Source: Lentilactobacillus diolivorans DSM 14421 (GTDB lineage: Bacteria; Bacillota; Bacilli; Lactobacillales; Lactobacillaceae). Taken from it: a stretch of 64,000 nt of DNA. Positions 11,656 to 54,287 of this stretch are shown in pieces. Where the stretch lies: NCBI RefSeq assembly GCF_001434255.1, contig NZ_AZEY01000075.1:1-64000 (forward strand), written 5' to 3'. The notes beneath the pieces are model-generated. The model did not search any database. It was not told where the DNA came from and saw only the letters and a program-made list of their open reading frames with translations. The position numbers and the translations under genes are program-made. Each line of letters starts with the position of its first letter. The first letter of the stretch is position 1.

Positions 11656-12864
11656 TTGTCTGATGTGATTGCTTTAGATGTTTCCGAAGGTCACAGTTAT
11701 GTCGTTTGGTATGCCAATGGTATTTGTCAAAATGAATTTCAAGTTTTACATACCCAATCCGGGTTTGCGAAGTTACTTAAACTAACGTTGCGAGCCAAGC
11801 ACCCCGTTGTGTACTTTGAAGCAACTGGGGTTTATTCGCGTCCGGTGGAGCACTTTTGCTGTGAGAATCAATTACCATATTGTCGCTTAAATCCGTTGGA
11901 TTTAAAATTAAAGACCAATGGCCTTCGACGACTTAAAACTGATTCCAAGGATGCCCATCGGATTGCCAGAGCTGCTTTGAGTAATCATTTTCGAATTACG
12001 CAACCCCGAACTTTAATTTACGCGAAAATGTGCGAATTAACCCGATTTCTTGACCGGATTCAAGCGGATATGCACGTTAAACATGTTCAGCTCCATGCCC
12101 AACTCCAACAAACTTTTCCAGAACTGGAACAGCTTTTTACCAGTCGAGTTTCCAAGCTGGCGTTAAAGGTTGTCAGTCTCTTTCCCCATCCTGATCTGGT
12201 CAGTGGGTTCTCACGGACGGTTCTAAAAAACCGCCTTATGCATAGCACCGAAAAGAAGCTGTCCAAGGTAAAGGGCCTGAAGTACGCTGAGAAGCTTCAA
12301 AAATTAGCTAAAGATAGTTATCCAGCAGTTAGTTCGGACAGTGTTCAAGTTCAAGCGGTTCGCTATTACTGCCACGCCCTGATTGACTTAACGGTTAAAA
12401 AAGAACATTTGATTAAGCAACTCGTGACACTGGCTCATAACCTGCCTGAGTTCGATGTTTTAACTTCAATACCTGGAATTGGCGCACAAAGTGCAGCCGA
12501 GTTAATTGGGGAACTTGGTAATATTCGGCGATTCGATAATGCTAATCAACTCAACGCCTTTGTTGGCATTGATATTAATCGATATCAATCCGGTGAATAT
12601 CTTCGACAGGACCATATTAATAAACGAGGTGATCCGAGAGCCCGCATGATTCTTTATCTAATCGTTAAGAATATGATTCGAGCCCAACGGCTTGCACCAA
12701 ACCACATTGTTGACTATTACTACCGACTAAAAAACGGCCCCACTCCTAAACGGAATAAGGTCGCTCTTGTTGCTTGTATGAACAAAACACTTTATTGCCT
12801 TTTCTCAATGGTCCAAGCTAACCAAAAGTATGATTACACATACCACGGACTCGTAGTCCCATAA
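11656..12864 (+). CDS. IS110-family transposase (DEDD recombinase)
   Basis: The 402-aa protein has an N-terminal RuvC-like domain with D8 (IALDVSEG), E55 (YFEATGVY), D96 and D99 (KTDSKDAHRIA). Its C-terminal IS116/IS110/IS902 domain contains SIPGIGAQSAAELIGELG and the GDPRARMILY region. It starts at TTG 11656 behind AGGAAG. The frame is intact, so the element may be active. The structured leader directly before it supports the IS110 rather than the IS1111 subgroup, where the guide RNA lies downstream. Confidence 0.95.
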   Translation: MSDVIALDVSEGHSYVVWYANGICQNEFQVLHTQSGFAKLLKLTLRAKHPVVYFEATGVYSRPVEHFCCENQLPYCRLNPLDLKLKTNGLRRLKTDSKDAHRIARAALSNHFRITQPRTLIYAKMCELTRFLDRIQADMHVKHVQLHAQLQQTFPELEQLFTSRVSKLALKVVSLFPHPDLVSGFSRTVLKNRLMHSTEKKLSKVKGLKYAEKLQKLAKDSYPAVSSDSVQVQAVRYYCHALIDLTVKKEHLIKQLVTLAHNLPEFDVLTSIPGIGAQSAAELIGELGNIRRFDNANQLNAFVGIDINRYQSGEYLRQDHINKRGDPRARMILYLIVKNMIRAQRLAPNHIVDYYYRLKNGPTPKRNKVALVACMNKTLYCLFSMVQANQKYDYTYHGLVVP

Positions 12865-16921: not shown

Positions 16922-19525
16922 ATGTTATCGACAAAAAATAAATGGGCACCAAAGTATTATTGGGGTGCAGTAATTGTTACGCCAATATTGATCGTCAGTG
17001 TGCTGTTTATCCTAATGAATATCGCACCATTTGGCGTTAATAATCTTTTGGTCAGCGATTTATCAACACAATATTTACAATTTTTTACGGAGTTAAGAAG
17101 ACAATTGCTGCATCTTTCGTTTTCAAGCTATTCGTTTTTAATTTCAATTGGCGATAGTCTGGTGCCTATCTATGCGTATTATTTGCTCAGCCCATTAAAT
17201 TTAATCATCGTTTTCTTTAGCAATGCTCATTTGCCGATTGCGATTGACTTGATTATTTGGGCAAAAATAATTCTTTGTAATATCACAATGAGCACCTTTT
17301 TGGCAAAAAAATACCAGCGCTATGATTTTATGACGATTTGTGGTGGTCTGGCATACGGATTATGTGGATTCGTTGCGATGTATTTTTATGATCTTATGTG
17401 GTTGGATGCACTAATTTGGCTGCCGGTGATGATTTATGGCCTAGAGAAGTTATTTTATCAAAATCGGGTGTGGTTGTACGTGTTTGGCCTGGTTATGATT
17501 ATTGTGACTAACTATTATATGGGGTATATCATCTGTGGATTTAGCGTGATGTATTTTGTCTACCTATTGAAAAAGAATCAGCCGGTCCACTTAAAATTTT
17601 GGCAGGCGATCCATCAACAGCGGAGAAAAGTTGGTCGCTTTATCTGGTATTCGGTGATTTCAGGGATGCTAACGGCGATTGTTCTCGTCCCAACTGCGCT
17701 TTCAATGTTATCGACCGGCAAGAAAAATATTTTACCCCGGAATTTCGCTTTTAAGGGCACATTTGGTCCAAGCTTCACTGTGAATTTAGGTGTCGGGGGT
17801 AATGATTTTGCTGGTCGGCTTGTCCATAATCCAAGTTTATTCACGGGATCACTGTTTATCATTGCGGCAATTGCCTACTTTTTTTCTAATCAAATTAGCA
17901 AACGGGATAAACAGGCATCAGGATTATTGTTGGGGGTTATTCTGTTTGGTATGTGGTTATTACCCTTAAATACAATTTGGCATATGATGCAACGGCCGGC
18001 TGGATTTCCATTCCGGATGGTCTTCTTATTTAGTTTTGTACTGATTATGGTTGCCTATGAAGGCTACATAAAGGGAGTCTTTAAGGATCAAAGACTAATT
18101 ATCTATTCGGCAGTGGGTTTGGGGACTGCGATTTTTATCGGTTATGTTTGGGCGACTATCTTTGGGCAGAAGCTGTTGCCGTACCAGTTTAAAATTTCCC
18201 AGCTTTCAGTAAATAATTTTGTCTTCCTATTGGTGGTTGGCTTAATTGGGATCACAGCATTTGAGATGATTCAAATTAGCGCCCACGCCCCTGGTAGTAA
18301 GGTCATCATGGTGCTGATCCTGGCATTTGAGATGTGCTTAAATTTTCTAATTGCAACAAGAAACGCGCCCTTTATTAATCAACACGATCTTGAGCGCTCA
18401 TATCAGCATGCTTCACAGTTAATCGGTAAAGTTGAACAGCGCGAACAGAATAAGAACCGATTTTACCGAATGGTCGTCATCGATCAGCCGTTTCGAGAGG
18501 TTTTTAATCGCCCCAATATGCCATATAGCGGATATAACGATGCACTTATTTTTCATAATCGGGGGGTTAGCTCTTATAGTTCAACATTAAACTCAAATAC
18601 CCATCATGTCTTAGCAAGCTTGGGTTTTTCAAGCCGAAATATTCGTCGGATTGATATGCTTGGAGGATCCGTAATCACCAACCATTTATTTGGGATCAGG
18701 TACTATTACTTAATCGGAAAACACCAGAATCGATTAATTGTTAGGAAAAATGCAGCTCAACTGGGATTTATGGTGAACGATCGGATGCAGCATTTGAAAT
18801 TTAAACGTGGTCAGGTTTTCGACAACCTGAATCGTTTTGTTCAAGCTGAGGCAGGGGATTCTGGTCACTATTTGGAGCAGCCTCAAGTTACCAGTTATCA
18901 ACAAAAAACGTTTAGAGATTTTTATCAATATAAAATGAAAATTCAAGCAACGACTTCGGGGCCTCATTACCTGTATATCCCTCGTGTGCGGTTGCATGGC
19001 GTTAAAATAATTGTTAATGGTGCAGTCCTATCTTCTTTATATAGTGGGTTAGGAACTGAAATGATTCCGTTGGGATATTTACAAAAGCATCAGGTGGCAA
19101 CCATTACATTGCAGTCTGTAAAGCAGTTAAGAAAACCGACGGAGGATGTTGCCGGGATTAATATCGCTAAATTTGAAAGAGTGGTTCAATTGACAGACCA
19201 GCATCAATTTAAGTTAGACGATGTGAATCGATTAAATGAACATGGCGGTCATTTTCGGGGCGTTGTTCATGTTGGCAAACGCAACCGAACACTTTTGCTG
19301 AGTATCCCATACGATCAAGGCTGGCAGGTACGTGTTGATGGCAAGCGACATCCAATCAAGAAAGTTGCCTCAGGTCTGATTGGTACTCAGCTAACACCCG
19401 GCAAGCATCGTCTGGCCTTTAATTATCATATTCGGGGCTTATTAGCGGGGGTATTCTTGTCATCCTGTGGATTAGTTTTAATGCTCGGATCAATTATTTT
19501 GAGAATGAAGCGTCATAATTTGTAA
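16922..19525 (+). CDS. YfhO-family membrane protein (GT-C type)
   Basis: The 867-aa protein has about 13 membrane helices in its N-terminal 550 residues and a large extracytoplasmic beta-rich region near the C-terminus, followed by a final helix (about 840-860). VSDLSTQYLQFFTELR near residue 44 includes the acidic first-loop motif of YfhO/GT-C proteins. Homologues in Bacillus and Listeria are linked to glycosylation of teichoic acids. The exact sugar and acceptor are unknown. It starts at ATG 16922 with GGAAGG upstream. It stands alone. Confidence 0.85.
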   Translation: MLSTKNKWAPKYYWGAVIVTPILIVSVLFILMNIAPFGVNNLLVSDLSTQYLQFFTELRRQLLHLSFSSYSFLISIGDSLVPIYAYYLLSPLNLIIVFFSNAHLPIAIDLIIWAKIILCNITMSTFLAKKYQRYDFMTICGGLAYGLCGFVAMYFYDLMWLDALIWLPVMIYGLEKLFYQNRVWLYVFGLVMIIVTNYYMGYIICGFSVMYFVYLLKKNQPVHLKFWQAIHQQRRKVGRFIWYSVISGMLTAIVLVPTALSMLSTGKKNILPRNFAFKGTFGPSFTVNLGVGGNDFAGRLVHNPSLFTGSLFIIAAIAYFFSNQISKRDKQASGLLLGVILFGMWLLPLNTIWHMMQRPAGFPFRMVFLFSFVLIMVAYEGYIKGVFKDQRLIIYSAVGLGTAIFIGYVWATIFGQKLLPYQFKISQLSVNNFVFLLVVGLIGITAFEMIQISAHAPGSKVIMVLILAFEMCLNFLIATRNAPFINQHDLERSYQHASQLIGKVEQREQNKNRFYRMVVIDQPFREVFNRPNMPYSGYNDALIFHNRGVSSYSSTLNSNTHHVLASLGFSSRNIRRIDMLGGSVITNHLFGIRYYYLIGKHQNRLIVRKNAAQLGFMVNDRMQHLKFKRGQVFDNLNRFVQAEAGDSGHYLEQPQVTSYQQKTFRDFYQYKMKIQATTSGPHYLYIPRVRLHGVKIIVNGAVLSSLYSGLGTEMIPLGYLQKHQVATITLQSVKQLRKPTEDVAGINIAKFERVVQLTDQHQFKLDDVNRLNEHGGHFRGVVHVGKRNRTLLLSIPYDQGWQVRVDGKRHPIKKVASGLIGTQLTPGKHRLAFNYHIRGLLAGVFLSSCGLVLMLGSIILRMKRHNL

Positions 19526-37090: not shown

Positions 37091-38626
37091 ATGAATTATA
37101 TTATTGGAATTGATGTGGGAACCACCAGTACAAAGGCGCTTCTCTATGATACCGATGGCAAAATTTATGCAAAGGCCAATAAAGGCTACACCCTATATCA
37201 AGACACTCCTGATATGGCAGAAGAAGATCCGGATGAGATTTTTAACGCGACTCTTTCAGCTATTCAAGAGGTAGTGGCAAAAGCACAATTAACTGACGGC
37301 AAAGTAATTGCGATTTCCTGGTCAGCCCAGCAACACAGTCTGATCGCATTAAATAAAGATTTTAAACCGTTAACCAGAACGCTGACCTGGGCAGATAACC
37401 GATCGGAAAAGTATGCCCGTGAATATAAAGAAAATGGTCGTGGGATGGCAATGTATCAACGGACTGGATTACCAATTCATCCGATGGGACCCTTCTACAA
37501 GCTGCTGTACTTTAAGAATGAACAGCCTGATTTATTTAAGCGAACGGCTTATTGGGTTGGCATTAAAGAATACATTATCTGGAAATATACCGGGGTTCTC
37601 AAAGAGGAAATTTCAATGGCAGCAGCCAGTGGTTTGCTTAATATGAAGACTTGTGATTGGGATCCAGAGGCACTTAAAGAAACTGGTATCACGAAAGATC
37701 AGCTTCCCGAGCTCGTTGATTTAACTGATAAGTTCCAAGGGATTAAATCAGAATATGCTAAAGTCATGGGAATTGACGAGGATGTCTATTTTGTAATGGG
37801 GGCAACTGATGGGGCGTTATCGACGATTGGCGTTGGCGCCATTGATAGCGGTGTCTTAGCTATTAATATCGGAACATCGGCCGCAGTGAGGACCTTTGTT
37901 GATAAGCCAAGGATTGATCCCAAAGCGCGGCTATATTGTTACCCAATCATGAAAGGGAAATACCTGGTTGGCGGTCCGATTAATAATGGTGGGATTGTCC
38001 TTAGCTGGGCGCATGACGCGTTATTTGCTTCAGAAGAGCAGGCAGCTAAATTACTTGGGATGGATTCATATGATATGTTGTCAAAAATTGCAGCAACTGT
38101 CCCGGCTGGTTCTGACGGCCTGATCTTCCATCCTTACTTGGGTGGTGAACGGGCACCGTTGTGGGATGCGAATGCTCGTGGTTCGTTCTTCGGACTTAAT
38201 CGAAAGCATACCAAAGCACATATGATCCGAGCTGTGATGGAAGGCATTATGTACAACCTTTATTCGGTTACTTTAGCCCTTAAGGAAGTTACCGGCGATC
38301 CCAAAGCCATTTTAGCAGCCGGTGGCTTTGCCCAATCCAAACTCTGGACACAAATGATGGCCGATATATTTGAGAATGATATTATTATCCCTGAATCCTA
38401 TGAAAGCGGCAGTCTGGCTGCGATGTTCCTGGCTAAGATGGCGTTGGGGATGGAGGATAAGCTTGAAGATATTAAGAAGTATTTAGGTAAGGAAAACAAA
38501 TATCAACCAAATGAAGAAACATTTGCGAGATATCGGAAACTGGTTCCGATTTACCTGCGATTGAGTCGTGAATTCTCAACGGAGTACAAGGCGATCGCGG
38601 ATTATCAACGAGAGTTTCCGGGATAG
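37091..38626 (+). CDS. gntK: Gluconokinase (FGGY family)
   Basis: Phosphorylates D-gluconate to 6-phosphogluconate. The 511-aa sequence closely follows Bacillus GntK as I recall it: IGIDVGTTSTKALLYD (phosphate 1), TWADNRSEKYA, TGLPIHPMGPFYKL (substrate region), IGTSAAVRTF (phosphate 2) and LAAGGFAQSKLW (adenosine). A relationship to xylulokinase exists, but the TGxPIHPM segment favours gluconate. It has its own promoter with two copies of the glucuronate-regulon operator. The product would feed gnd and the phosphoketolase pathway. No gluconate permease lies next to it. Confidence 0.92.
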   Translation: MNYIIGIDVGTTSTKALLYDTDGKIYAKANKGYTLYQDTPDMAEEDPDEIFNATLSAIQEVVAKAQLTDGKVIAISWSAQQHSLIALNKDFKPLTRTLTWADNRSEKYAREYKENGRGMAMYQRTGLPIHPMGPFYKLLYFKNEQPDLFKRTAYWVGIKEYIIWKYTGVLKEEISMAAASGLLNMKTCDWDPEALKETGITKDQLPELVDLTDKFQGIKSEYAKVMGIDEDVYFVMGATDGALSTIGVGAIDSGVLAINIGTSAAVRTFVDKPRIDPKARLYCYPIMKGKYLVGGPINNGGIVLSWAHDALFASEEQAAKLLGMDSYDMLSKIAATVPAGSDGLIFHPYLGGERAPLWDANARGSFFGLNRKHTKAHMIRAVMEGIMYNLYSVTLALKEVTGDPKAILAAGGFAQSKLWTQMMADIFENDIIIPESYESGSLAAMFLAKMALGMEDKLEDIKKYLGKENKYQPNEETFARYRKLVPIYLRLSREFSTEYKAIADYQREFPG

Positions 38627-38633
38627 GAAACAA

Positions 38634-38757
38634 AGTGGGGTAAAAGGCGGTTAGCTCCCAGAATATAAGTAACTCAGCTAGATATTCGGGGTTTGAATAT
38701 TTGACTGAGTTACTTATATGGCCGGGAGCTGGCTTTTGAACCACGTTTCCACTTGGT
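38634..38757 (+). repeat. Intergenic hairpin repeat after gntK
   Basis: A single full unit starts 8 nt after the stop codon (hairpin 38635-38744). The conserved frame is GTGGGG..GGCGGTTAG, CCCAGAATATAAG, ATATTCGGGGTTTGAATAT, CTTATATGGCCGGGAG and CCACGTTTCC. The private arms are GTAACTCAG / CTGAGTTAC and AAAAGGC / GCTTTT. Confidence 0.88.
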
Positions 38758-38807
38758 AATAATTAAAAGAGACTGAGATAAATGAGTCCCTTTATCGAGT
38801 TTGTTTT

Positions 38808-38821
38808 TGTAACCGCTTTAT
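38808..38821 (+). promoter_or_regulatory. cre-like site before the GH30 gene
   Basis: TGTAACCGCTTTAT matches the cre consensus except for the last two bases and lies 31 bp before the TTG start. Confidence 0.4.
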
Positions 38822-38851
38822 CATATCATTTATGAATGGGAAGATGATTTT

Positions 38852-40402
38852 TTGACAACTAATAATGAATCAAGTGAATTTTCAACAGAATTTTGGACTT
38901 CAACGGCAGGCGATCTTTCACAGAAGCGTGAGCAAATTGCCACACCCAAATTTGGTGATGCCGATCAAGCAGCAGCTAAAATCGTGATTGATCCTTCTGA
39001 AAAGCATCAGGATTGGTTGGGACAAGGTGCCGCAATTACTGATTCAGCAGCTTCGTTGATTTGGGGCGTTTTAAACAAAGATCAACGGGATTCTCTGCTT
39101 CATGAATTATTTGATCCGACTCAGGGTGGTTTTTCAACTGTTCGGGTACCCCTTGGATCGTGTGATTTTTCAAGTCAGGATTACTACACTTACGATGATG
39201 TACCGTTTGGCGAACATGATTTTAAGCTTGAAAAATTTTCCGTTGGTGAGGGTAAGCCGGGGGCACCTGATGCAACTAAAGATTTGAAGTACATCGTACC
39301 GGTTCTCCAAGAAATTTTAAAAATTAATCCAGCTGTTAAAATCATTGCATCACCGTGGTCGGCACCAGCGTGGATGAAGAATACGGGTCACTTAACCTTT
39401 GGTGGTCATTTACGATTTGGTGAGTTTACGGGAAACGGCTATGGTAAAGCCCACACGTTTGATGCCGTTTATGCCCGCTACTTTGTCCGTTATATCGAGG
39501 CCTACCAAAAGTTGGGGATTCCAATCTATGGTGTGACAATTCAAAATGAACCGTCTAATGCAGCTCACTGGCCGGCAATGATTTGGACACCAAATCAAAT
39601 CGCTGAATTTGGGTACGAGTATCTTCGACCAGCTCTGAATTCGACGTTCCCGGCAACTAAAATTTACTTCTTGGATGATAGTTTTCATGCGTTGGATCAG
39701 CCGATTACCAACAATGTCACGCCTGTCCAAGCAAGTGCCTTTGACGGGTTAGCGGTTCATACTTACACAGGACCTTATCCATACCTGTTTAACGCTAACC
39801 GGGCTTTTCCAAATTGGCAGGTTATTATGACTGAACGGCGTTGCATGATGGAAGAAACGCCTGAAGATGCTGCCCACATTATGTTTGGCATTATTGCCAA
39901 CTGGTTGGTTCGAAATGGTCTGAATATGATTAATCTCTGGAATATTGCTTTGGACGAACGGGGGTTGCCAAACGCAGCGGATTCAACAGGTCGCCGCGGC
40001 GTTGTCACCATTGACCATACAACCGGTAAAGTTCAGCGTAATCTTGAATATTATATGCTCCGCAACTTTGGTCAGGATGTTCCAGTTGGCTCAATTGTCA
40101 TCGGATCATCCAATTATACGCCGGATGGGTTTACAGGTGGCTTGGGATCAGTAGCGTTCTTAGCTCCTGATGGTTCAATCTCAGCCCATCTCTATAATCC
40201 GACTGGTCAGCCATTGAAAGCAGCCGTTACAATTAACGGGTATGCGGTTAATTGGCAGAACGTGACGGTCCCGGCTTGGGGAACGGTAACCTTGCATAAA
40301 GCCAATCATGCAGTGAATGAATCAAAGGTTCCTGCTGATGATCACTTTAAGCTCAACCCAACACCGGCTAATACTGATGATGTCGCACCGGGAAGAAAGT
40401 AG
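38852..40402 (+). CDS. GH30-family glycoside hydrolase
   Basis: A 516-aa intracellular enzyme with no signal peptide. The TIM barrel contains VIDPSEKHQDWLGQGAAITD at the N-terminus, the acid/base glutamate in TIQNEPSN and the nucleophile in VIMTERRC. A C-terminal beta-sandwich (about 410-516) follows. GH30 members include beta-glucosylceramidase, beta-xylosidase, beta-fucosidase and glucuronoxylanase; in this island an enzyme acting on glucosides, xylosides or glucurono-oligosaccharides is plausible. It starts at TTG 38852 with a weak GGGAAG site. A terminator follows. Confidence 0.85.
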   Translation: MTTNNESSEFSTEFWTSTAGDLSQKREQIATPKFGDADQAAAKIVIDPSEKHQDWLGQGAAITDSAASLIWGVLNKDQRDSLLHELFDPTQGGFSTVRVPLGSCDFSSQDYYTYDDVPFGEHDFKLEKFSVGEGKPGAPDATKDLKYIVPVLQEILKINPAVKIIASPWSAPAWMKNTGHLTFGGHLRFGEFTGNGYGKAHTFDAVYARYFVRYIEAYQKLGIPIYGVTIQNEPSNAAHWPAMIWTPNQIAEFGYEYLRPALNSTFPATKIYFLDDSFHALDQPITNNVTPVQASAFDGLAVHTYTGPYPYLFNANRAFPNWQVIMTERRCMMEETPEDAAHIMFGIIANWLVRNGLNMINLWNIALDERGLPNAADSTGRRGVVTIDHTTGKVQRNLEYYMLRNFGQDVPVGSIVIGSSNYTPDGFTGGLGSVAFLAPDGSISAHLYNPTGQPLKAAVTINGYAVNWQNVTVPAWGTVTLHKANHAVNESKVPADDHFKLNPTPANTDDVAPGRK

Positions 40403-40435
40403 AAAATCAATCTCCATTATCATTAAATTGAAAGT

Positions 40436-40491
40436 AAATCCAGTTGACAAATTACGTGAAACGCGGAGGTTTGTTGACTGGATTTATTTTT
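40436..40491 (+). terminator. Intrinsic terminator after the GH30 gene
   Basis: AAATCCAGTTGACAAA pairs with TTTGTTGACTGGATTT apart from a 2-bp mismatch and is followed by ATTTTT. Confidence 0.8.
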
Positions 40492-40654
40492 GTGGGGAAG
40501 ACTGTTTTTAACAAATGTCTTTGATGGCATAAATAAGTTAACTCGGCTTTGCCTTAAAATTTGAAAAGTTTGTTTGATAAATTTTTCTGGTGTCCTCAAA
40601 GAAAGGTGAGCTTATTTTATAATAATTGGCAGGTTTATTGCGATTTAAATTTTT

Positions 40655-40662
40655 GCTATAAT
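40655..40662 (+). promoter_or_regulatory. Extended -10 promoter of the TAC-like operon
   Basis: TG-C-TATAAT forms an extended -10 element 34 bp before the first start codon. No strong -35 is visible, which is common for extended -10 promoters. Confidence 0.55.
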
Positions 40663-40695
40663 ACTCTATATGTTAACGCTGAAAGGAATGACTAA

Positions 40696-41340
40696 TTGAA
40701 TATGAAATGCATCCCTTTTCGTCAGCAGGGAGTACGACTTTCTATTACTGATATGTTGCATAATTTATTACATGATTATGAAACTATTGAAGATGAAATT
40801 AACGCTCGGAAAGCTTATAGATATTATCTGCTAATCACTAAATGTTTAGCAGTCAGTAGTAACTTTGATGTTAGCGATTTTATGGCATTGTTGAAAAATA
40901 AACGTCCATCCTTGAAATCCGGTCCGTTCTTAATTTATGATGATGTTAGTGATGAAGATGTTGAAATTAAAAGTTTTGAGCTTATCAAAAATATTAAAGG
41001 GAAAGGAAAAGAGATTGGACCTTCTTTACATCAATATATTATTCAAGCGCCTATCTTTGAACTAAGGATAAATAGTGAAGGTTTTGGGTTTCGATCAATT
41101 CTTTTTTTGTCTTCTAAAGAATTTAATGATGAATTTGATCAATTCCAATGTTACTGTGATTGTTTTAGAAAAGAAAAATATGATACATCAGTGGCAAGGC
41201 ATCGTGGCCATAGGAAAACGAATCAAGCAATATTATCGACGACATCGGTTTATCAGTTGTTTAGAAGTAACGAATCCTTATTTGAATCTTTTTTTGCAAG
41301 TACACAAATTATTGCGATGGAAGGGGAGGTGTTTGTATGA
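40696..41340 (+). CDS. Putative HigB/RelE-like toxin of a TAC-like system
   Basis: A 214-aa protein with no clear family match. Residues about 118-162 (APIFELRINSEGFGFRSILF, then a CDCFRKEK segment) recall the core of Gp49/HigB-type RelE toxins: ELRI, GxxxR, LYF, then F-KK. The first 110 residues are helical and extra compared with the usual roughly 100-aa toxins. It starts at TTG 40696 behind AAGGA and overlaps the next gene by 4 bp (ATGA). The operon is AT-rich compared with its neighbours, suggesting transfer. The toxin role is inferred from operon order and this weak motif. Confidence 0.5.
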   Translation: MNMKCIPFRQQGVRLSITDMLHNLLHDYETIEDEINARKAYRYYLLITKCLAVSSNFDVSDFMALLKNKRPSLKSGPFLIYDDVSDEDVEIKSFELIKNIKGKGKEIGPSLHQYIIQAPIFELRINSEGFGFRSILFLSSKEFNDEFDQFQCYCDCFRKEKYDTSVARHRGHRKTNQAILSTTSVYQLFRSNESLFESFFASTQIIAMEGEVFV

Positions 41341-41819
41341 AACGTATCCGAGATATCAGAAAACATGCTAGAAACGTTACAAGCCAAGATAATTATTTAA
41401 AACACACAGAACTTATGTCGGCCATGTTAAAGTACAATCTCTACATGGGGCACGACTTGGCCTGGGATCAGATGGCAAAGGATAATAACCTGGTGGTTGA
41501 AGATTTACGGGGATTTTTAAGCGGTCGAAGCCATGATATTGGTATGTATAATCAATTAATTACGTATGTTCAGGGACGATATTCTTTGAGATCGTTGGAT
41601 GTTCAGGCAGACTATCGGTTTGCAGATCACATGCCGCTCATGCGTAAGTCTAATTTAGATGATCATTCATCCAATATTACTTCCCTGACCGGAATCTCTA
41701 TTAATGATTATAATCCCCAGTACCAATACCAATTGCCCGAATTGTCAGATGGGATAAGTAAACAAAGTGTTCAACATATTACTACACTCAATAGTAGCGT
41801 AAAGACGATCACAGTATAA
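41337..41819 (+). CDS. Putative antitoxin with aromatic C-terminal tail
   Basis: A 160-aa basic protein. Residues about 22-80 contain helices that could form a DNA-binding unit (LAWDQMAKDNNLVVEDLRGF, LSGRSHDIGMYNQLITYVQG). The C-terminal 50 residues look disordered and contain DYNPQYQYQLPEL, an aromatic and hydrophobic stretch of the kind that chaperone-addiction tails use to bind SecB. A strong GGGGAGGTG site precedes ATG 41337, which overlaps the upstream stop. In toxin-antitoxin-chaperone systems the order is toxin, antitoxin, SecB-like chaperone, as here. I recognise no named antitoxin family. Confidence 0.5.
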   Translation: MKRIRDIRKHARNVTSQDNYLKHTELMSAMLKYNLYMGHDLAWDQMAKDNNLVVEDLRGFLSGRSHDIGMYNQLITYVQGRYSLRSLDVQADYRFADHMPLMRKSNLDDHSSNITSLTGISINDYNPQYQYQLPELSDGISKQSVQHITTLNSSVKTITV

Positions 41820-41836
41820 AGAAGTAGGTGAAGTAG

Positions 41837-42370
41837 TTGCTCAAGAATGATATAAAATCGAATAATAAAAAGCATGTTGATGTGCATTTAGAGAGCGTAA
41901 AAGTACAAAAGGCTTTTTTAACAGATTCAAAAGAAATGGATCAGTATATACAAGATCATCACTATTTGAATTCGAGTCAAGTTCATTTTGGAACAGGCCA
42001 AACAAGTATGACAATTAATTTTATACCTCGCAATCTTGATAAAAATAACGGGTCTCAACATTCTGATAAACAGTACAAAAGTGAAGATTTAATACTGTCT
42101 ACACAAGCACAAGTTTTATATAATACAAATGAACATTCAGCTCTTGTGATTGCCGAATCGTTGATGTCACTTCATGGAACAGCAGAATGGAATGAAAAAG
42201 AAATCCAAAGCTTTTTAAATCAAGGCGCCACTCGAATAATGACACCAGTATTAAAAAAGATAACATTTTTAATGTATGCTCTTTTTGATTCTTCGGAGAT
42301 TGTTGGAATAATTCCTGATTTCTTGGAACTTGCTGCTAATAAGCTTAAAACTCCAGAACAGAAGAAATGA
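41837..42370 (+). CDS. SecB-like chaperone domain protein
   Basis: The 177-aa protein has an N-terminal beta-rich half (VDVHLESVKVQKAF, TSMTINFIPRNL, LILSTQAQVLY) with amphipathic strands. A C-terminal helical part (FLNQGATRIMTPVLKKITFL, then IIPDFLELA) matches the SecB pattern of a helix with Pro before the aromatic/basic segment and a final P-x-F/NF-x-L strand. Lactobacilli normally lack the secretory SecB, so a SecB-like protein in an operon with two small genes is most simply the chaperone of a TAC system. It starts at TTG 41837 behind TAGGTGA. The assignment is by eye. Confidence 0.55.
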   Translation: MLKNDIKSNNKKHVDVHLESVKVQKAFLTDSKEMDQYIQDHHYLNSSQVHFGTGQTSMTINFIPRNLDKNNGSQHSDKQYKSEDLILSTQAQVLYNTNEHSALVIAESLMSLHGTAEWNEKEIQSFLNQGATRIMTPVLKKITFLMYALFDSSEIVGIIPDFLELAANKLKTPEQKK

Positions 42371-42396
42371 TTAAAGGCTTGAGTGCGAGGATTATA

Positions 42397-42702
42397 TTGA
42401 ATAAAATTTACGGTTTGACCCTTGATTCAGCAGGCCGATGTCAACACTATCATACGAAAGTCGATATTGTTGCGTTGAAATGTGCCAAGTGTCAGCAATA
42501 TTACGCGTGCTATCAATGCCATGACAAACTGGTTGGTCATCATTTTATCCCGGTTAAAACGGATGGCCCAGCGCCGGCCTTATGCGGTGTTTGCCGAAAC
42601 ACATTAACGTATTGACAATATTCGCTTGGTCATTGTCCATATTGCGGCCATGCATTTAATCCTAAGTGTCAATTGCATCATGATATCTATTTTCGATCAT
42701 AA
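42397..42702 (+). pseudogene. CHY zinc-finger protein interrupted by in-frame TGA
   Basis: TTG 42397 behind GCGAGG begins NKIYGLTLDSAGRCQHYH, a CHY zinc-finger protein with Cys/His motifs CQHYHT, CAKCQ, CYQCH and CGVCRN. The frame stops at TGA 42613-42615. The same frame then continues with QYSLGHCPYCGHAFNPKCQL and ends at TAA 42700-42702. The last CPYCGH motif is expected in intact proteins of about 100 aa. So a single base change has split the gene, unless TGA is read through. It overlaps the TAC-like operon end only by an upstream in-frame extension that I do not use. Confidence 0.8.
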
Positions 42703-42723
42703 ATGTAAGGTTCTTCAATCATT

Positions 42724-42774
42724 AAATAGCGTCTTAAAAATTATCCAACATCGGTAATTTTTAAGACGCTATTT
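42724..42774. terminator. Bidirectional intrinsic terminator
   Basis: AAATAGCGTCTTAAAAATTA pairs with its exact complement around an 11-nt loop, between the CHY remnant and ribB, which converge. Confidence 0.9.
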
Positions 42775-42809
42775 GATTTGATTAATTTTTCGGTAAGCTG
42801 GTTAATATC

Positions 42810-43451
42810 TTAAACGCTTGCAGCCACCAATTTTTCATGCATATAGGTTTTAATTTGGTCAATGGTGATTAACGGCAAGCCCCATTCTTTAGCGTCTTGA
42901 GCTAAATCATCGCGACGAGCCATATGACCATCTGACTTAATCACTTCAATAATTGCAGCAACAGGTGCTTTACCACATAGTTTGGCAAGGTCAACTGAGG
43001 CCTCAGTGTGACCGTCACGAGAAAGCAGGCCGGATTCTTTGGCGATCAATGGGAAAACATGGCCGGGATGGTTAAAATCGGTTGGCTTGGCATCTGCAGT
43101 TGCCAAATGTTTAATTGTGGCAGCCCGATCAAATGCAGAAACGCCGGTTGTCACACCAGTTGCGTGATATTCACCATCGGTCGAAATGGTAAATGGGGTC
43201 TGATTGGGATCAGTGCTATGTTCCACCATCATTCGAAAGCCGAGTTTTTCAGCAACTTTTGGACTCATCGGGGCACATAGAAGTCCTTTTGCGTGACCAA
43301 TCATGAAATTGACAGTCTCGGGGGTAATCGTTTCGCCCAAAGTGACGATGTCACCCTCATTTTCACGGTTTTCATTGTCGGCTAAGATAATCATACCGCC
43401 ATTTTTCAAAGTTTCTAGCGCCTTATTAATATCTGAAAAAATGCTTGCCAA
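42810..43451 (-). CDS. ribB: 3,4-dihydroxy-2-butanone 4-phosphate synthase
   Basis: Makes the four-carbon precursor of riboflavin from ribulose 5-phosphate. The 213-aa length is that of a stand-alone RibB without the GTP cyclohydrolase II domain. Signature motifs are ILADNENRENEGDIV (acid loop), GLLCAPMS, TTGVSAFDRA and FNHPGHVFPL. The start is taken as TTG 43451 with AGGAG 11 nt upstream; GTG 43463 overlaps that site. No ribA, ribD, ribE or ribH lies nearby and no FMN riboswitch was seen. Confidence 0.93.
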   Translation of the reverse strand: MASIFSDINKALETLKNGGMIILADNENRENEGDIVTLGETITPETVNFMIGHAKGLLCAPMSPKVAEKLGFRMMVEHSTDPNQTPFTISTDGEYHATGVTTGVSAFDRAATIKHLATADAKPTDFNHPGHVFPLIAKESGLLSRDGHTEASVDLAKLCGKAPVAAIIEVIKSDGHMARRDDLAQDAKEWGLPLITIDQIKTYMHEKLVAASV

Positions 43452-43703
43452 AAGAATCCACACTCCTAATTTTATTTATAAGGAAGATGGCCATCGTTCA
43501 CCTACAACTATTAAAATACATACATTTTCATGAAAAGTCAATGAAAATCAAAAATAAAACGAACTATATAACGACAATTCCACTTAATCGTTCGTATAGG
43601 TTTCAAAAACTAAAGGCAGTTTACCTAATTTTTCAACAATAAAATATCTTAATTATGTGGACTAGTGAGCTGAAACGTGGCTTAAACAATGTTAAACTGG
43701 TAT

Positions 43704-43717
43704 TGGATACGTTTTCA
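43704..43717 (+). promoter_or_regulatory. Candidate cre site before ackA
   Basis: TGGATACGTTTTCA matches the cre consensus with two mismatches. CcpA activates ackA in Bacillus from an upstream cre, so this may be a control site. The remaining gap to ribB holds no gene. Confidence 0.4.
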
Positions 43718-43752
43718 TAAGGAAAAATTCATTTACATGGAGGTACCACGCT

Positions 43753-44928
43753 ATGTCCAAAGTACTGATTGTTAACGCAGGAAGTTCATCACTTAAATTC
43801 AAACTGTTTGATATGCCAAAGGAAGATGTGCTTGCTGACGGTGAAATCGAACGATTAAATATGCCGGGATCAATTGTGAAGGTTAAATACGGCGATGGTC
43901 AGGTATACAAAACTGTTGAAGATAATATTGATTATGAACGTTCGGCCGCAATTATGCTGAACGGGTTAAAAGATTTGGGAATCATTGATCATCTACATGA
44001 AGTCAGCGCCGTTGGTAATCGAGTTGTTGCAGGCAGCACGCACTTTGATAAGGTTGCCAAGATTGATGACGAGGCTTTGAACTGGATTGTTCAACTAGGT
44101 GAAATTGCCCCAATCCATAATCCGGTTGAAGCTGAATACATCAAGATTATTCAGCGAATTTTGCCGGATACCGATCAATATGCCATTTTTGACAGTGCCT
44201 TCTTTAAAGATGTGCCAGAGGTGAATGCCATTTATGGGATTCCATATGAGCTGACACAAAAGTACACAATCCGGCGCTACGGTGAGCACGGAATCAATCA
44301 TGGCTATATTACCCAACAGGCTCAAAAACTGTTGGGGTATGACAGCGCGAAACTAGTGACACTGCATTTGGGATCCGGGGCATCAGTTGCCGCTGAAAAG
44401 GATGGTAAATGTGTCGATACCTCAATGGGCTTTACCCCGATGAACGGGTTAGTCATGGGAACTCGCTCCGGCGATCTTGACCCGGCTTTGGTCCCATTTT
44501 TCATGAAACGAATGGGCGCCAGTGCCGATGAAGTGATGGATATGTTTAACCATCGATCAGGGTTACTTGGCGTTTCGGGTGTTTCTTCTGATATGCGTGA
44601 CCTCGAAAGCTCCGATGATGACCGGGCTAAATTAGCGTTGGAAATGTTTGTCAACCGGACGGTAAAATACGCTGCCGGCTACATTACCGAACTGGGAGGC
44701 GTTGATGCTATTGTCTTTTCCGGTGGCATTGGCGAGCATGATCAGTGGGTCCGTGACCAGGTTTGCAAGAAGTTGGAAATCTTTGGGATTAAACTTGATG
44801 ATCAGTTAAATAAAGAACAACAGCCAGGTGATTTGAGTACGAAAGAGTCATCGGCTCGAATCTTCTTAATTCCTGCCAATGAAGAGTTGGCGATGGTCAG
44901 GGATGTTGATCAGAGCATTCAGAAATAG
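43753..44928 (+). CDS. ackA: Acetate kinase
   Basis: Converts acetyl phosphate and ADP to acetate and ATP, the energy-yielding step after phosphoketolase. The 391-aa sequence has the ASKHA signatures VLIVNAGSSSLKFKLFD (1-19), YGEHGINHGYITQQA, LVTLHLGSGASVAA and FSGGIGEH. TGGAGG precedes ATG 43753. It is probably monocistronic, closed by the intergenic hairpin that starts at its stop codon. Confidence 0.97.
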   Translation: MSKVLIVNAGSSSLKFKLFDMPKEDVLADGEIERLNMPGSIVKVKYGDGQVYKTVEDNIDYERSAAIMLNGLKDLGIIDHLHEVSAVGNRVVAGSTHFDKVAKIDDEALNWIVQLGEIAPIHNPVEAEYIKIIQRILPDTDQYAIFDSAFFKDVPEVNAIYGIPYELTQKYTIRRYGEHGINHGYITQQAQKLLGYDSAKLVTLHLGSGASVAAEKDGKCVDTSMGFTPMNGLVMGTRSGDLDPALVPFFMKRMGASADEVMDMFNHRSGLLGVSGVSSDMRDLESSDDDRAKLALEMFVNRTVKYAAGYITELGGVDAIVFSGGIGEHDQWVRDQVCKKLEIFGIKLDDQLNKEQQPGDLSTKESSARIFLIPANEELAMVRDVDQSIQK

Positions 44929-45190
44929 AGTGGGCCAGCAAGCGGTTAGACCCCAGAATATAAGCCCCCTGACTTGATATTCCCGATTTTGGAATATTAA
45001 GTCAGGGGGCTTATATGGCCGGGGTCTGCTTGCTGGCCCACGTTTCGGCAAAGGACAAAGTTCAACGAGATATTTCCGGTTTGAATATTTGGACAATTCG
45101 CTTACACGGTCGGAAGTTGCCTTTTGTTCGTTTTACTCGGTAATAATTGTGTTTACACTAACAGAAACTGGACAAAACAATTATTATCCC
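44929..45190 (+). repeat. Intergenic hairpin repeat after ackA plus degenerate second unit
   Basis: The full unit (hairpin 44930-45041) begins 1 nt after the ackA stop. Its outer arms GTGGGCCAGCAAGC and GCTTGCTGGCCCAC are perfectly complementary, as are the inner arms GCCCCCTGACTT and AAGTCAGGGGGC. A degenerate second unit with GGAAGTTGCCTTTTG, CTCGGTAATAATTGTG and a decayed GACAAAAC hairpin follows to about 45190. Confidence 0.9.
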
Positions 45191-52561: not shown

Positions 52562-53673
52562 ATGAAATTTTTGAAAAAGTATATTTTATTTCCAAAACGG
52601 TTTGGTATTTTTCCCTATATCTGGATGATTTGGATTATTTACCCAATTACGGATTTATGGCCGTTTAATCGGGTTGATACCATTATCCCAACAATCCTGC
52701 TGATTTGTTTTCTATGGTTTTACCGGAATGGCTACAGTGTCTCTAAAGCCCTGCCAATCTGGATATATGGCCAGTATGGCATTATCTTTGTCCTGACAAT
52801 AACCAATGAATGGATCTATCTCTTATTATTTTCAGCTTGGGAGATTTCTTCATTGCCGGTCAGTAAGCGGACATTTCATCAGTTCCTAGCGGGGTACTAC
52901 ATGACCTTGGTCGTCTGTATGGGGTTATTGATGGCCCTCGATGAGATGACGCCGTGGTCGTTTACCAATCAAATGAGCATTGTGATGGTATTGTTTTTGA
53001 TTTTATCGCCACTGGGTGGTAAATCGGTTGCAAATTCGTACCGGCGCTCGCAACAGTTAAGGCAGCAGAACTCTCGGTATGCAAATTTAATTAAACGTGG
53101 CGAACGTGAACGAATTGCCCGTGATTTGCATGATACGTTGGGCCAGTCATTTTCAATGATTACCATTAAATCTGAGTTGGCAGCTAAATTGCTTGATAAG
53201 AACCCGGATCAGGTTAAAAATGAATTAAAGGAAATTTCTGAGGCATCGCGCCAAAATTTACAGTTGGTCAGAAATATTGTAACCGGACTTAGGCAAACAT
53301 CGATTGCAGAGATTATGATTGAACTGGCTGATGAACTAAAACTCCAGCAGATTAGTCTAATGACTGATGGGGAAGGTCAAACCAACAAGTGGCCGCATGA
53401 CATTCAAAATATTTTAGCAGATATTTTGCGAGAGGCGATTACTAATGTAATGCGGTATAGCCGGGCAGATCAAGTTGAAGTTCACTTTACGCAAACCAAA
53501 GCTGCCTATCACTTAATGGTTGCTGATAACGGCAAGGGCTACAAAGCAGTTCGAAAAGATGCCATGGCATTAAAGGAATGGCAGAACGCCCCAAAATTGT
53601 CGGTGGAAAATTTGGCATTCAAACCAGCCGATCTGGGACAGTCATCAATGTGCAACTACCAAAGGAGGGATGA
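52562..53673 (+). pseudogene. DesK/NarX-type histidine kinase with 3' frameshift
   Basis: The first 340 residues are normal: about five membrane helices, then the HisKA_3 box ERERIARDLHDTLGQ and the ATPase N-box REAITNVMRYS, followed by DNGKGY. After RKD (about 53560) the reading frame continues into an unrelated tail to 53704. In the -1 frame the expected ending is intact: HGIKGMAERPKIVGGKFGIQ, then SGTVINVQLPKEG, stopping at TGA 53671-53673, just before the regulator start. A one-base change near 53550-53565 has therefore removed the G2 box. The kinase may be inactive, or the base may be a sequencing error. Confidence 0.85.
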
Positions 53674-53678
53674 TAGTC

Positions 53679-54287
53679 ATGGCAATCAAAATTATTTTAG
53701 CTGAGGATCAGAGTTTACTCAGTAGTGCTTTGGCACAATTACTCAACTTGGAGGATGACTTAGATGTTATTGGCACCTATGCGGATGGTCAGGCGGCTTG
53801 GCAGCATATTAAATATGATCATCCGGACGTTGCGATTCTTGACATTGAAATGCCTAAGCAGACTGGACTTCAAGTAGCTGAAACCATTCATTCCGAAAAA
53901 TTGCCTGTGAAGGTCATTATCTTAACAACTTTCGCTAACAAGCAATATTTTGAAACGGCGGTTCAAGCAAAAGTGAATGGTTATTTGTTAAAAGATATTC
54001 CAAGCGATGAGCTAATTCAGTCCATCCATGAAGTGATAGCGGGCAAAACGTTATATTCACCGGAACTGGTCACGTCAATTTTAGGGGATGTAACCAACCC
54101 ACTGTCACAAAAGGAAACCCAGATTTTAAAGGAAATTAGTCTCGGAAAATCAACTTCTGAAATTGCCAAAGCATTGTATTTATCAGGTGGAACGGTACGT
54201 AATTATATCTCGGCGATTCTCAGTAAATTGGGGGCCGTTAATAGAATTGAGGCGTTAAATATTGCGGAGAAGCATCGGTGGATGTGA
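53679..54287 (+). CDS. NarL/LuxR-family response regulator
   Basis: A 202-aa regulator. The receiver domain has the acidic pair in ILAEDQ, phosphoacceptor Asp in AILDIEMP and Lys in LLKDIP. The C-terminal LuxR helix-turn-helix is LSQKETQILKEISLGKSTSE to LGAVNRIEALNIA. ATG 53679 is chosen because AGGAGG lies 10 nt upstream; the earlier ATG at 53670 is too close. Its partner kinase is frameshifted. The probable binding sites are the paired palindromes at 50830-50863. Confidence 0.92.
   Translation: MAIKIILAEDQSLLSSALAQLLNLEDDLDVIGTYADGQAAWQHIKYDHPDVAILDIEMPKQTGLQVAETIHSEKLPVKVIILTTFANKQYFETAVQAKVNGYLLKDIPSDELIQSIHEVIAGKTLYSPELVTSILGDVTNPLSQKETQILKEISLGKSTSEIAKALYLSGGTVRNYISAILSKLGAVNRIEALNIAEKHRWM

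What the first reader, a model, noticed from the sequence alone, without database searches (positions are those of the whole stretch)
40696..42370. A toxin-antitoxin-chaperone (TAC)-like operon with a SecB-like protein
Seen: an AT-rich three-gene operon with its own extended -10 promoter. Genes 1 and 2 overlap by ATGA. Gene 3 has a SecB-like beta-rich half followed by a helical half with Pro/aromatic pattern. Gene 2 ends in a disordered tail with DYNPQYQYQLPEL. Known: TAC systems are ordered toxin, antitoxin with C-terminal chaperone-addiction tail, then SecB-like chaperone, and lactobacilli usually lack secretory SecB. Inferred: this is a TAC system whose 214-aa toxin has an N-terminal extension fused to a weak HigB/RelE core. 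Neither the toxin nor the antitoxin resembles a named family by eye, so it may be a new TAC subtype.
Basis: partly seen in the sequence, partly recalled or inferred. Interest (0 to 1): 0.82.

Follow-up and report, generated by a model that had tools for sequence, protein, structure and literature searches.

The report
Orphan TAC-like operon, toxin frame suspect
A lactic acid bacterium carries a small gene cluster laid out like a poison-antidote-helper system, but none of its three proteins has a recognisable relative and the presumed poison gene looks garbled, so the idea stays an unproven though testable possibility.

Summary
The operon is real: three co-directional low-GC genes (40696-41340, 41337-41819, 41837-42370) with an ATGA overlap, an extended -10 promoter and hairpins on either side. 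A stop-broken CHY zinc-finger gene follows. The TAC reading is only partly supported. Genes 1-3 have no significant match in Pfam, NCBIfam, PADLOC or PHROGs, and no relative was found in the genomes, phages, plasmids and viral contigs searched, so synteny cannot be tested. Gene 2 is probably a helix-turn-helix protein with a long unstructured tail (low-confidence model). Gene 3 fits the SecB C-terminal order only weakly (16 of 1000 shuffles score as high; HMM E 0.77). Gene 1 shows no RelE match, and its frame is suspect: over about 41143-41238 the +1 frame looks coding and the annotated frame does not, unlike any of 140 comparison genes. The 'weak RelE core' lies across that break. Lactobacillaceae and their order do carry many SecB operons (53 of 62 loci have a TA-type partner), but this is not one of their two common kinds. 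Best reading, at about 0.35: a strongly diverged TAC-type module with a damaged or mis-sequenced toxin gene.

The parts
40431..40490 (+). Inverted repeat (21-nt arms, 86% complementary) followed by T-rich sequence: likely terminator of the upstream glycosidase-like gene
   Evidence: I3; sequence; not listed by the stricter terminator scan
40634..40662 (+). Extended -10 promoter: TTTATT, 17 nt, TATAAT with TG at 40654-40655
   Evidence: read; the consensus scan does not report it, its -35 having too few matches
40682..40687 (+). Shine-Dalgarno-like AAAGGA 8 nt before the TTG start (40696); an in-frame ATG is at 40702
   Evidence: read
40696..41340 (+). Gene 1, 214 aa, presumed toxin; no significant family match in the annotated frame
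41143..41238 (+). Stretch of gene 1 where the annotated frame scores as non-coding and the +1 frame (open 41075-41371) as coding: likely frame disruption or sequence error
41337..41819 (+). Gene 2, 160 aa, presumed antitoxin; starts within the stop codon of gene 1 (ATGA)
41382..41612 (+). Gene 2 residues 16-92: predicted helical HTH-like part
   Evidence: low-confidence model
41613..41816 (+). Gene 2 residues 93-160: nearly no predicted secondary structure, 38% N/Q/S/T, includes DYNPQYQYQLPEL; candidate chaperone-addiction tail
41837..42370 (+). Gene 3, 177 aa, presumed SecB-like chaperone
42191..42325 (+). Gene 3, about residues 119-163 (the start is approximate): stretch aligned to the SecB C-terminal helices
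42397..42615 (+). Gene 4, CHY zinc finger (PF05495), last gene of the unit, cut short by an in-frame stop; start chosen by eye (the ORF itself begins at 42367)
42721..42777 (.). Inverted repeat (23-nt arms, 96% complementary): likely terminator

Best explanation
Genes 1-3 are most likely a strongly diverged toxin-antitoxin-chaperone (TAC)-type module acquired horizontally. Gene 2 would be an HTH antitoxin and autorepressor whose unstructured tail makes its folding depend on gene 3. Gene 3 would be a SecB-like holdase that binds the tail and lets gene 2 fold and neutralise the product of gene 1. Gene 1 would be a growth-inhibiting toxin, perhaps of the RelE/HigB fold. In the sequence at hand gene 1 seems to change reading frame in its last third, so its toxin is probably damaged, or the assembly carries an error there. 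Shown: the operon, its boundaries, the ATGA overlap, the low GC, the lack of relatives in what was searched, the frame anomaly. Weakly supported: HTH plus tail for gene 2, SecB-like C-terminus for gene 3. Inferred: horizontal origin, every function, and the chaperone dependence.
For: Gene order, spacing and ATGA overlap. Single-sequence model of gene 2: five helices within residues 2-81 and only one four-residue helix after; by their titles 33 of the 50 PDB rows shown are DNA-binding regulators, many of the Xre/Cro/HipB kind, and VIA lists antitoxins HipB (Z 4.0) and HigA2 (Z 2.8). Gene 3 aligns in the expected register to the SecB helix region and is the top hit of 140 window ORFs to a 63-member SecB-like profile, though at E 0.77. 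C-terminal test: 16 of 1000 shuffles and 0 of 185 non-SecB locus ORFs of 110-330 aa reach its score. SecB genes with a TA-type partner are common in this family and order: 53 of 62 loci. A review counts 33 TAC chaperones absent from the SecB Pfam domain (PMC4257090, passages).
Against: No significant family match for genes 1-3 in four libraries. No SecB hit in the own genome at E <= 1. hhalign of gene 3 to SecB ranks ninth of 56, below 4 of 30 shuffles. Gene 3 is also the top window ORF for an unrelated profile (ART-like cluster, E 0.63), so its top rank at E 0.77 means little. Gene 2, which nobody takes for SecB, scores 9.6 on the SecB C-terminal test against 10.7 for gene 3, and 3 of 51 window ORFs of 110 aa or more (397, 475 and 604 aa) score higher. 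An earlier setting gave 3, 17 and 6 of 300 shuffles for three choices of the stretch, and 3, 9 and 3 of 51 ORFs. The gene 3 model has pLDDT 36 and matches nothing relevant. Gene 1 gives no RelE match. Gene 2's tyrosine count in its last 60 residues (3) is not distinctive.
Confidence: 0.35

Rival explanations
1. An orphan accessory or defence-type operon of unknown mechanism: an HTH regulator with two unrelated partner proteins, neither toxin nor SecB. The resemblances to TAC come from gene order and chance.
For: No significant profile, structural or homology match for any of the three; the SecB and RelE resemblances are reached by 16 of 1000 and 25 of 500 shuffles, and gene 2 scores nearly as well as gene 3 on the SecB stretch.
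Against: Order, overlap, an HTH-like protein with unstructured tail in second place and a SecB-like C-terminal register in third place all point the same way.
Confidence: 0.35
2. An ordinary two-gene toxin-antitoxin pair (genes 1 and 2, HTH antitoxin) with a third gene that is not a chaperone for it.
For: ATGA overlap and HTH-like gene 2; gene 3 starts 17 nt after gene 2 and is unmatched.
Against: Gene 1 matches no toxin family; a 68-residue unstructured tail is unneeded in a plain pair (inference).
Confidence: 0.2
3. On gene 1 alone, independent of the other rivals: it is real and intact in the annotated frame; the Cys/His-rich stretch (about residues 150-180) is genuine and the +1 frame signal is a fluke.
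For: The 214-aa frame stays open to the ATGA start of gene 2, and over 41236-41337 the annotated frame again scores better (2.2 against -3.4). With switching penalties of 7 and 9 the frame model keeps one frame throughout, and with 5 it leaves it only at 41323 for the frame of gene 2; at 3 it passes through both other frames. The 140 comparison genes have relatives in their training half, which favours their true frames.
Against: 0 of 17,195 windows in the 140 comparison genes had a better +1 frame (largest difference -0.005) against +5.8 here. With a model from the window's own ORFs, free of that bias, gene 1 has 11.0 and only one of 45 ORFs, which starts inside the preceding gene, scores higher. 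Two other genes in the window are also broken.
Confidence: 0.2
4. Gene 1 is distantly related to GrpE (co-chaperone) over residues 30-122 rather than to a toxin.
For: GrpE is the best, though insignificant, hit in three places: NCBIfam NF010738 E 0.011 (0.012 for the joined reading), PDB 4ani E 0.42 (joined reading), and 3 of the 6 weak genome matches, confirmed as GrpE (a fourth gave no family, two were not tested).
Against: No Pfam GrpE match at E <= 1 for gene 1 or at E <= 10 for the joined reading; GrpE is probably in every genome searched, so a few chance hits among 200 genomes are expected (inference).
Confidence: 0.05

Closest known systems
HigBA-type TAC (Mycobacterium HigB1-HigA1-SecB-TA)
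   Same: Three-gene order, presumed HTH antitoxin with a C-terminal extension, third gene of roughly SecB size (comparison from PMC4257090 and PMC5105189, passages, and recall)
   Different: No match to the SecB or Gp49 Pfam profiles; the mycobacterial proteins themselves were not compared; gene 1 frame-suspect; chaperone dependence untested
CmdTAC (PADLOC PD-T4-9; this equation is recalled) and lactobacillar relatives such as L004
   Same: Order toxin, antitoxin, SecB-like; frequent in the same family and order (28 of 62 SecB loci have an ART-like first gene; only L004 and L081 were checked with PADLOC, L004 at 9e-15, L081 weakly and to another model)
   Different: Genes 1-3 give no PADLOC hit, and genes 1 and 2 match none of the upstream-gene clusters; gene 2 is larger and HTH-like
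Lactobacillar SecB operons with a ~115-aa first gene and an HTH antitoxin (e.g. L008)
   Same: HTH antitoxin with a tail, then SecB, tight overlaps (25 of 62 loci, 23 with both genes)
   Different: Gene 2 lacks their N-terminal ~70 residues before the HTH (by eye); no sequence match of genes 1 and 2 to these clusters

Membership tests
TAC (toxin-antitoxin-chaperone) | Three co-directional genes in one transcription unit, of toxin-antitoxin-chaperone order and size | tested here: met
   Arrangement only; co-transcription is inferred
TAC (toxin-antitoxin-chaperone) | Third protein matches the SecB family profile (PF02556) | tested here: not met
   No hit at E <= 1; wider 63-member profile E 0.77
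TAC (toxin-antitoxin-chaperone) | Third protein has the SecB fold | tested here: inconclusive
   Model too poor, pLDDT 36; C-terminal register fits, 16 of 1000 shuffles as high
TAC (toxin-antitoxin-chaperone) | Antitoxin with a folded core plus an unstructured C-terminal extension | tested here: inconclusive
   Low-confidence model: HTH-like 16-92, 93-160 almost without structure
TAC (toxin-antitoxin-chaperone) | Extension recruits the chaperone; toxin neutralised only when the chaperone is present | not testable with these tools
   Needs co-expression assays
HigB/RelE toxins | Match to RelE/HigB (Gp49) profile or fold | tested here: inconclusive
   Pfam none. Own 31-sequence profile: annotated frame 119 of 500 shuffles as high, joined reading 25 of 500; HMM scores below the best shuffles; fold not modelled
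CmdTAC (PD-T4-9) | ADP-ribosyltransferase toxin matching PD-T4-9_A | tested here: not met
   No hit for genes 1-4 at E <= 1, while lactobacillar L004 hits at 9e-15 in the same library

The most novel reading that the evidence does not exclude
A chaperone-addicted TA module in which toxin, antitoxin and SecB-like chaperone have all diverged beyond sequence recognition, known so far from one species. The chaperone-addiction architecture would then extend well beyond what the SecB profile finds.
Probability: 0.28. Interest if true: 0.6.

Novelty: new variant of a known kind. Interest (0 to 1): 0.35.

Why it matters
If right, TAC modules are commoner than the SecB profile shows, and this would be a test case for how far a chaperone and its addiction tail can co-diverge. 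It also shows that the presumed toxin ORF of a short orphan operon should be checked for frame breaks before a new family is built on it.

Tried and rejected
Relatives: tblastn in plasmids and phages (gene 2, joined gene 1, gene 3), blastn of the operon in plasmids (30), viral contigs with each gene (13-15), genome contigs with gene 3 only (23), and whole-genome searches with gene 1 (397 family genomes; 200 of the class), gene 2 (397 family) and gene 3 (100 relatives; 199 of the phylum). These numbers include the own genome, and the draws are samples that overlap. The one extra gene 1 match (L003) lies in what I read by eye as a BglG-type antiterminator. One search gave six weak ones; three are GrpE. 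One search gave 32 other genomes at E <= 1 (best 0.005); most of the places are in long or stop-filled frames and none was followed. Gene 3 was not searched across the whole family draw.

Weak family hits not followed: phrog_21581 with gene 1 (E 0.049) and phrog_7384 with gene 3 (E 0.25), phrog_26459 with the C-terminal part of gene 3 (E 0.25).

HMM and hhalign tests of gene 3 against SecB and HMM tests of gene 1 against RelE are not significant. The first SecB profile held one wrong row (L025) and one partial one (L032); L032 was dropped and L025 replaced by its right ORF; one search widened that set. The profile alignment tests used two parameter sets for SecB and, for RelE, first the whole profile because my script missed the core motif (213 of 300 shuffles for the annotated frame, 63 of 300 for the joined reading), then the core (76). 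In one search, 2 of 51 window ORFs and 5 of 245 locus ORFs (one a true RelE) score at least as high as the joined reading, and the bare +1 ORF does no better than its shuffles (232 of 500). The AF2 models are low-confidence; Foldseek for gene 3 gave nothing usable. Absence of a family from the VIA list excludes nothing.

Labels: 'MqsR-like', used in my scripts for the short first genes, is recalled and unconfirmed (Pfam gives none); 'ART-like' for the 28 loci is by eye except for L004; 'GH30' or glycosidase for 38852-40402 is by eye.

Full report
What is there. GC over the operon is 30-38% in 500-nt windows, against mostly 40-50% in the flanks. A TATAAT with an extended TG ends 33 nt before the start; its -35 is weak and the consensus scan does not list it. 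An inverted repeat after the upstream glycosidase-like gene (40431-40490) and a strong hairpin at 42721-42777 bound the unit. A fourth gene follows 26 nt after gene 3 if its start is the TTG at 42397: a CHY zinc finger (PF05495, E 4e-10). It stops early: the same frame continues after a TGA with a second zinc half like that of the 99-aa protein of genome G003. In G004, a close relative by the gene upstream, the three upstream genes are 83-88% identical in protein, but none of this unit lies in the 13.5 kb fetched around them. Rfam finds nothing in 38000-45000.

Who carries it. Apart from the own genome, no credible relative of gene 1 was found in 397 family genomes or 200 of the class, of gene 2 in 397 family genomes, or of gene 3 in 100 relatives and 199 genomes of the phylum. 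Plasmids, phages, viral contigs and, for gene 3, genome contigs gave nothing. The draws are overlapping samples of larger groups. The family is taken as Lactobacillaceae because the RelE-type protein of family member G180 (L016) is identical to one from Lactobacillus sp. UCMA15818.

Gene 3. Pfam finds no SecB in it, nor in the own genome at E <= 1, while 37 of 301 family genomes have one over the cut-off. Of 63 loci fetched around PF02556 hits in family and order genomes, 62 hold a SecB-like protein by my profile (63 proteins, one gene being split). Of these 62 loci, 28 have an ART-like gene upstream, 25 an HTH antitoxin (23 of them with a short first gene), and 9 neither. PADLOC calls L004's first protein PD-T4-9_A and L008's SecB PD-T4-9_C; that PD-T4-9 is CmdTAC is recalled. 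Against the 63-member profile gene 3 is the best of 140 window ORFs, but at E 0.77, in a register that puts its residues 112-138 on the SecB helix region. That rank means little: gene 3 is also the best window ORF for an ART-like toxin cluster, E 0.63. An earlier profile gave E 1.7, third; hhalign ranks it ninth of 56. A whole-motif alignment of the C-terminal SecB stretch scores 10.7: 16 of 1000 shuffles, 3 of 51 window ORFs of 110 aa or more (397, 475, 604 aa) and 0 of 185 non-SecB locus ORFs of 110-330 aa reach it; gene 2 scores 9.6; SecB-like proteins have a median of 75.5, minimum -6.3. An earlier setting gave 3, 17 and 6 of 300 shuffles and 3, 9 and 3 of 51 ORFs for three choices of the stretch. 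The single-sequence model is of no use (pLDDT 36). So SecB is a fair guess, not a result. A review counts 33 TAC chaperones absent from PF02556 (PMC4257090, passages), so a Pfam miss does not exclude it.

Gene 2. No family match. The single-sequence model (pLDDT 40) has helices at 2-12, 18-36, 42-49, 54-61 and 68-81 and one four-residue helix after that. Its PDB matches are insignificant by E-value (best 0.64), but by their titles 33 of the 50 rows shown are DNA-binding regulators, many Xre/Cro-type: 434 Cro, SinR, C.Esp1396I, HipB. VIA gives Z 5.9 for the MuB N-domain, 5.2 for HNF-1A, 4.0 for HipB and 2.8 for HigA2, all in the range where a common arrangement suffices. Residues 93-160 are 38% N/Q/S/T. 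That fits an HTH antitoxin with an addiction tail of the kind described for TAC antitoxins (PMC5105189, passages), but its tyrosine content is not distinctive.

Gene 1. No significant family match; the best insignificant one is GrpE. A codon model trained on 107 AT-rich locus genes favours the annotated frame strongly up to 41115 (23.1 against -43.8), but over 41140-41235 the +1 frame (3.4 against -4.2), then over 41236-41337 again the annotated frame (2.2 against -3.4). Calibration: in 140 SecB-operon genes, each half scored with a model from the other half, none of 17,195 32-codon windows had the +1 frame ahead (maximum -0.005); gene 1 has +5.8 at 41143. For the +2 frame 9 of 17,195 windows reached 5.5. 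These genes have relatives in the other half, which favours their true frames. A model from the window's own ORFs has less of that bias: gene 1 ranks second of 45 (11.0); the first (16.1) and third (9.6) start inside the preceding gene; the fourth, 16922-19525 (7.2, +2 frame), is unexplained. The Viterbi path splits gene 1 only at the lowest switching penalty, 3, and then passes through both other frames; at 5 it changes only at 41323, into the frame of gene 2. One frame change, two, or a fluke remain possible. By eye the reading that changes frame looks like a RelE/HigB C-terminus, but the tests are weak: 25 of 500 shuffles for it, 119 of 500 for the annotated frame; whole profile 63 and 213 of 300; HMM 1.8 and 1.3 bits, both below the best shuffles. 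A sensor kinase about 11 kb away (52562-53704) also looks broken: HATPase_c matches only 4-51 of 111 and, by eye, the rest of the domain reads in another frame. With the stop in gene 4 this makes a sequencing problem or a decaying strain plausible; which, I cannot tell.

Function. The anatomy is what a TAC module predicts and each part is compatible with it, but none of the three identities is established, and one defining feature (SecB profile) was tested and not met. I therefore say that it may work like a TAC, not that it is one. The result most useful to others is the caution on gene 1.

Literature. Searches. TAC systems, CmdTAC homologues in Gram-positive species (PMC11618068, passages) and a SecB homologue in Lactobacillus casei (PMC6201924, passages) are in print. 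In these four listings I saw no title or abstract start on SecB operons of lactobacilli as TAC modules; only listings and the named passages were seen.

Noticed in passing
window 42397-42615 and following: CHY zinc-finger gene ended by an in-frame stop; the frame continues with a second zinc half like that of the G003 relative (L035:1414-1713, minus strand).
   Followed up: partly
window 52562-53704: Sensor kinase (HisKA_3, DesK_N) whose ATPase domain match is cut short; by eye the rest reads in another frame before the response regulator at 53670-54287.
   Followed up: partly
L004-L033, L056-L088: SecB-like genes of the family and order: 53 of 62 loci have an ART-like gene or an HTH antitoxin upstream, 9 have neither.
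   Followed up: partly
L013, L020, L026, L027, L030, L033: Six similar SecB-like proteins without a TA pair; five of the six have ABC-transporter-type genes upstream (by eye). They may be a conserved chromosomal SecB homologue.
   Followed up: no
window 16922-19525, about 17561: Large membrane-protein-like ORF with a 32-codon window in which the +2 frame scores 7.2 nats better; possibly composition only.
   Followed up: no
window 11656-12864: IS110-type transposase-like ORF (by eye).
   Followed up: no
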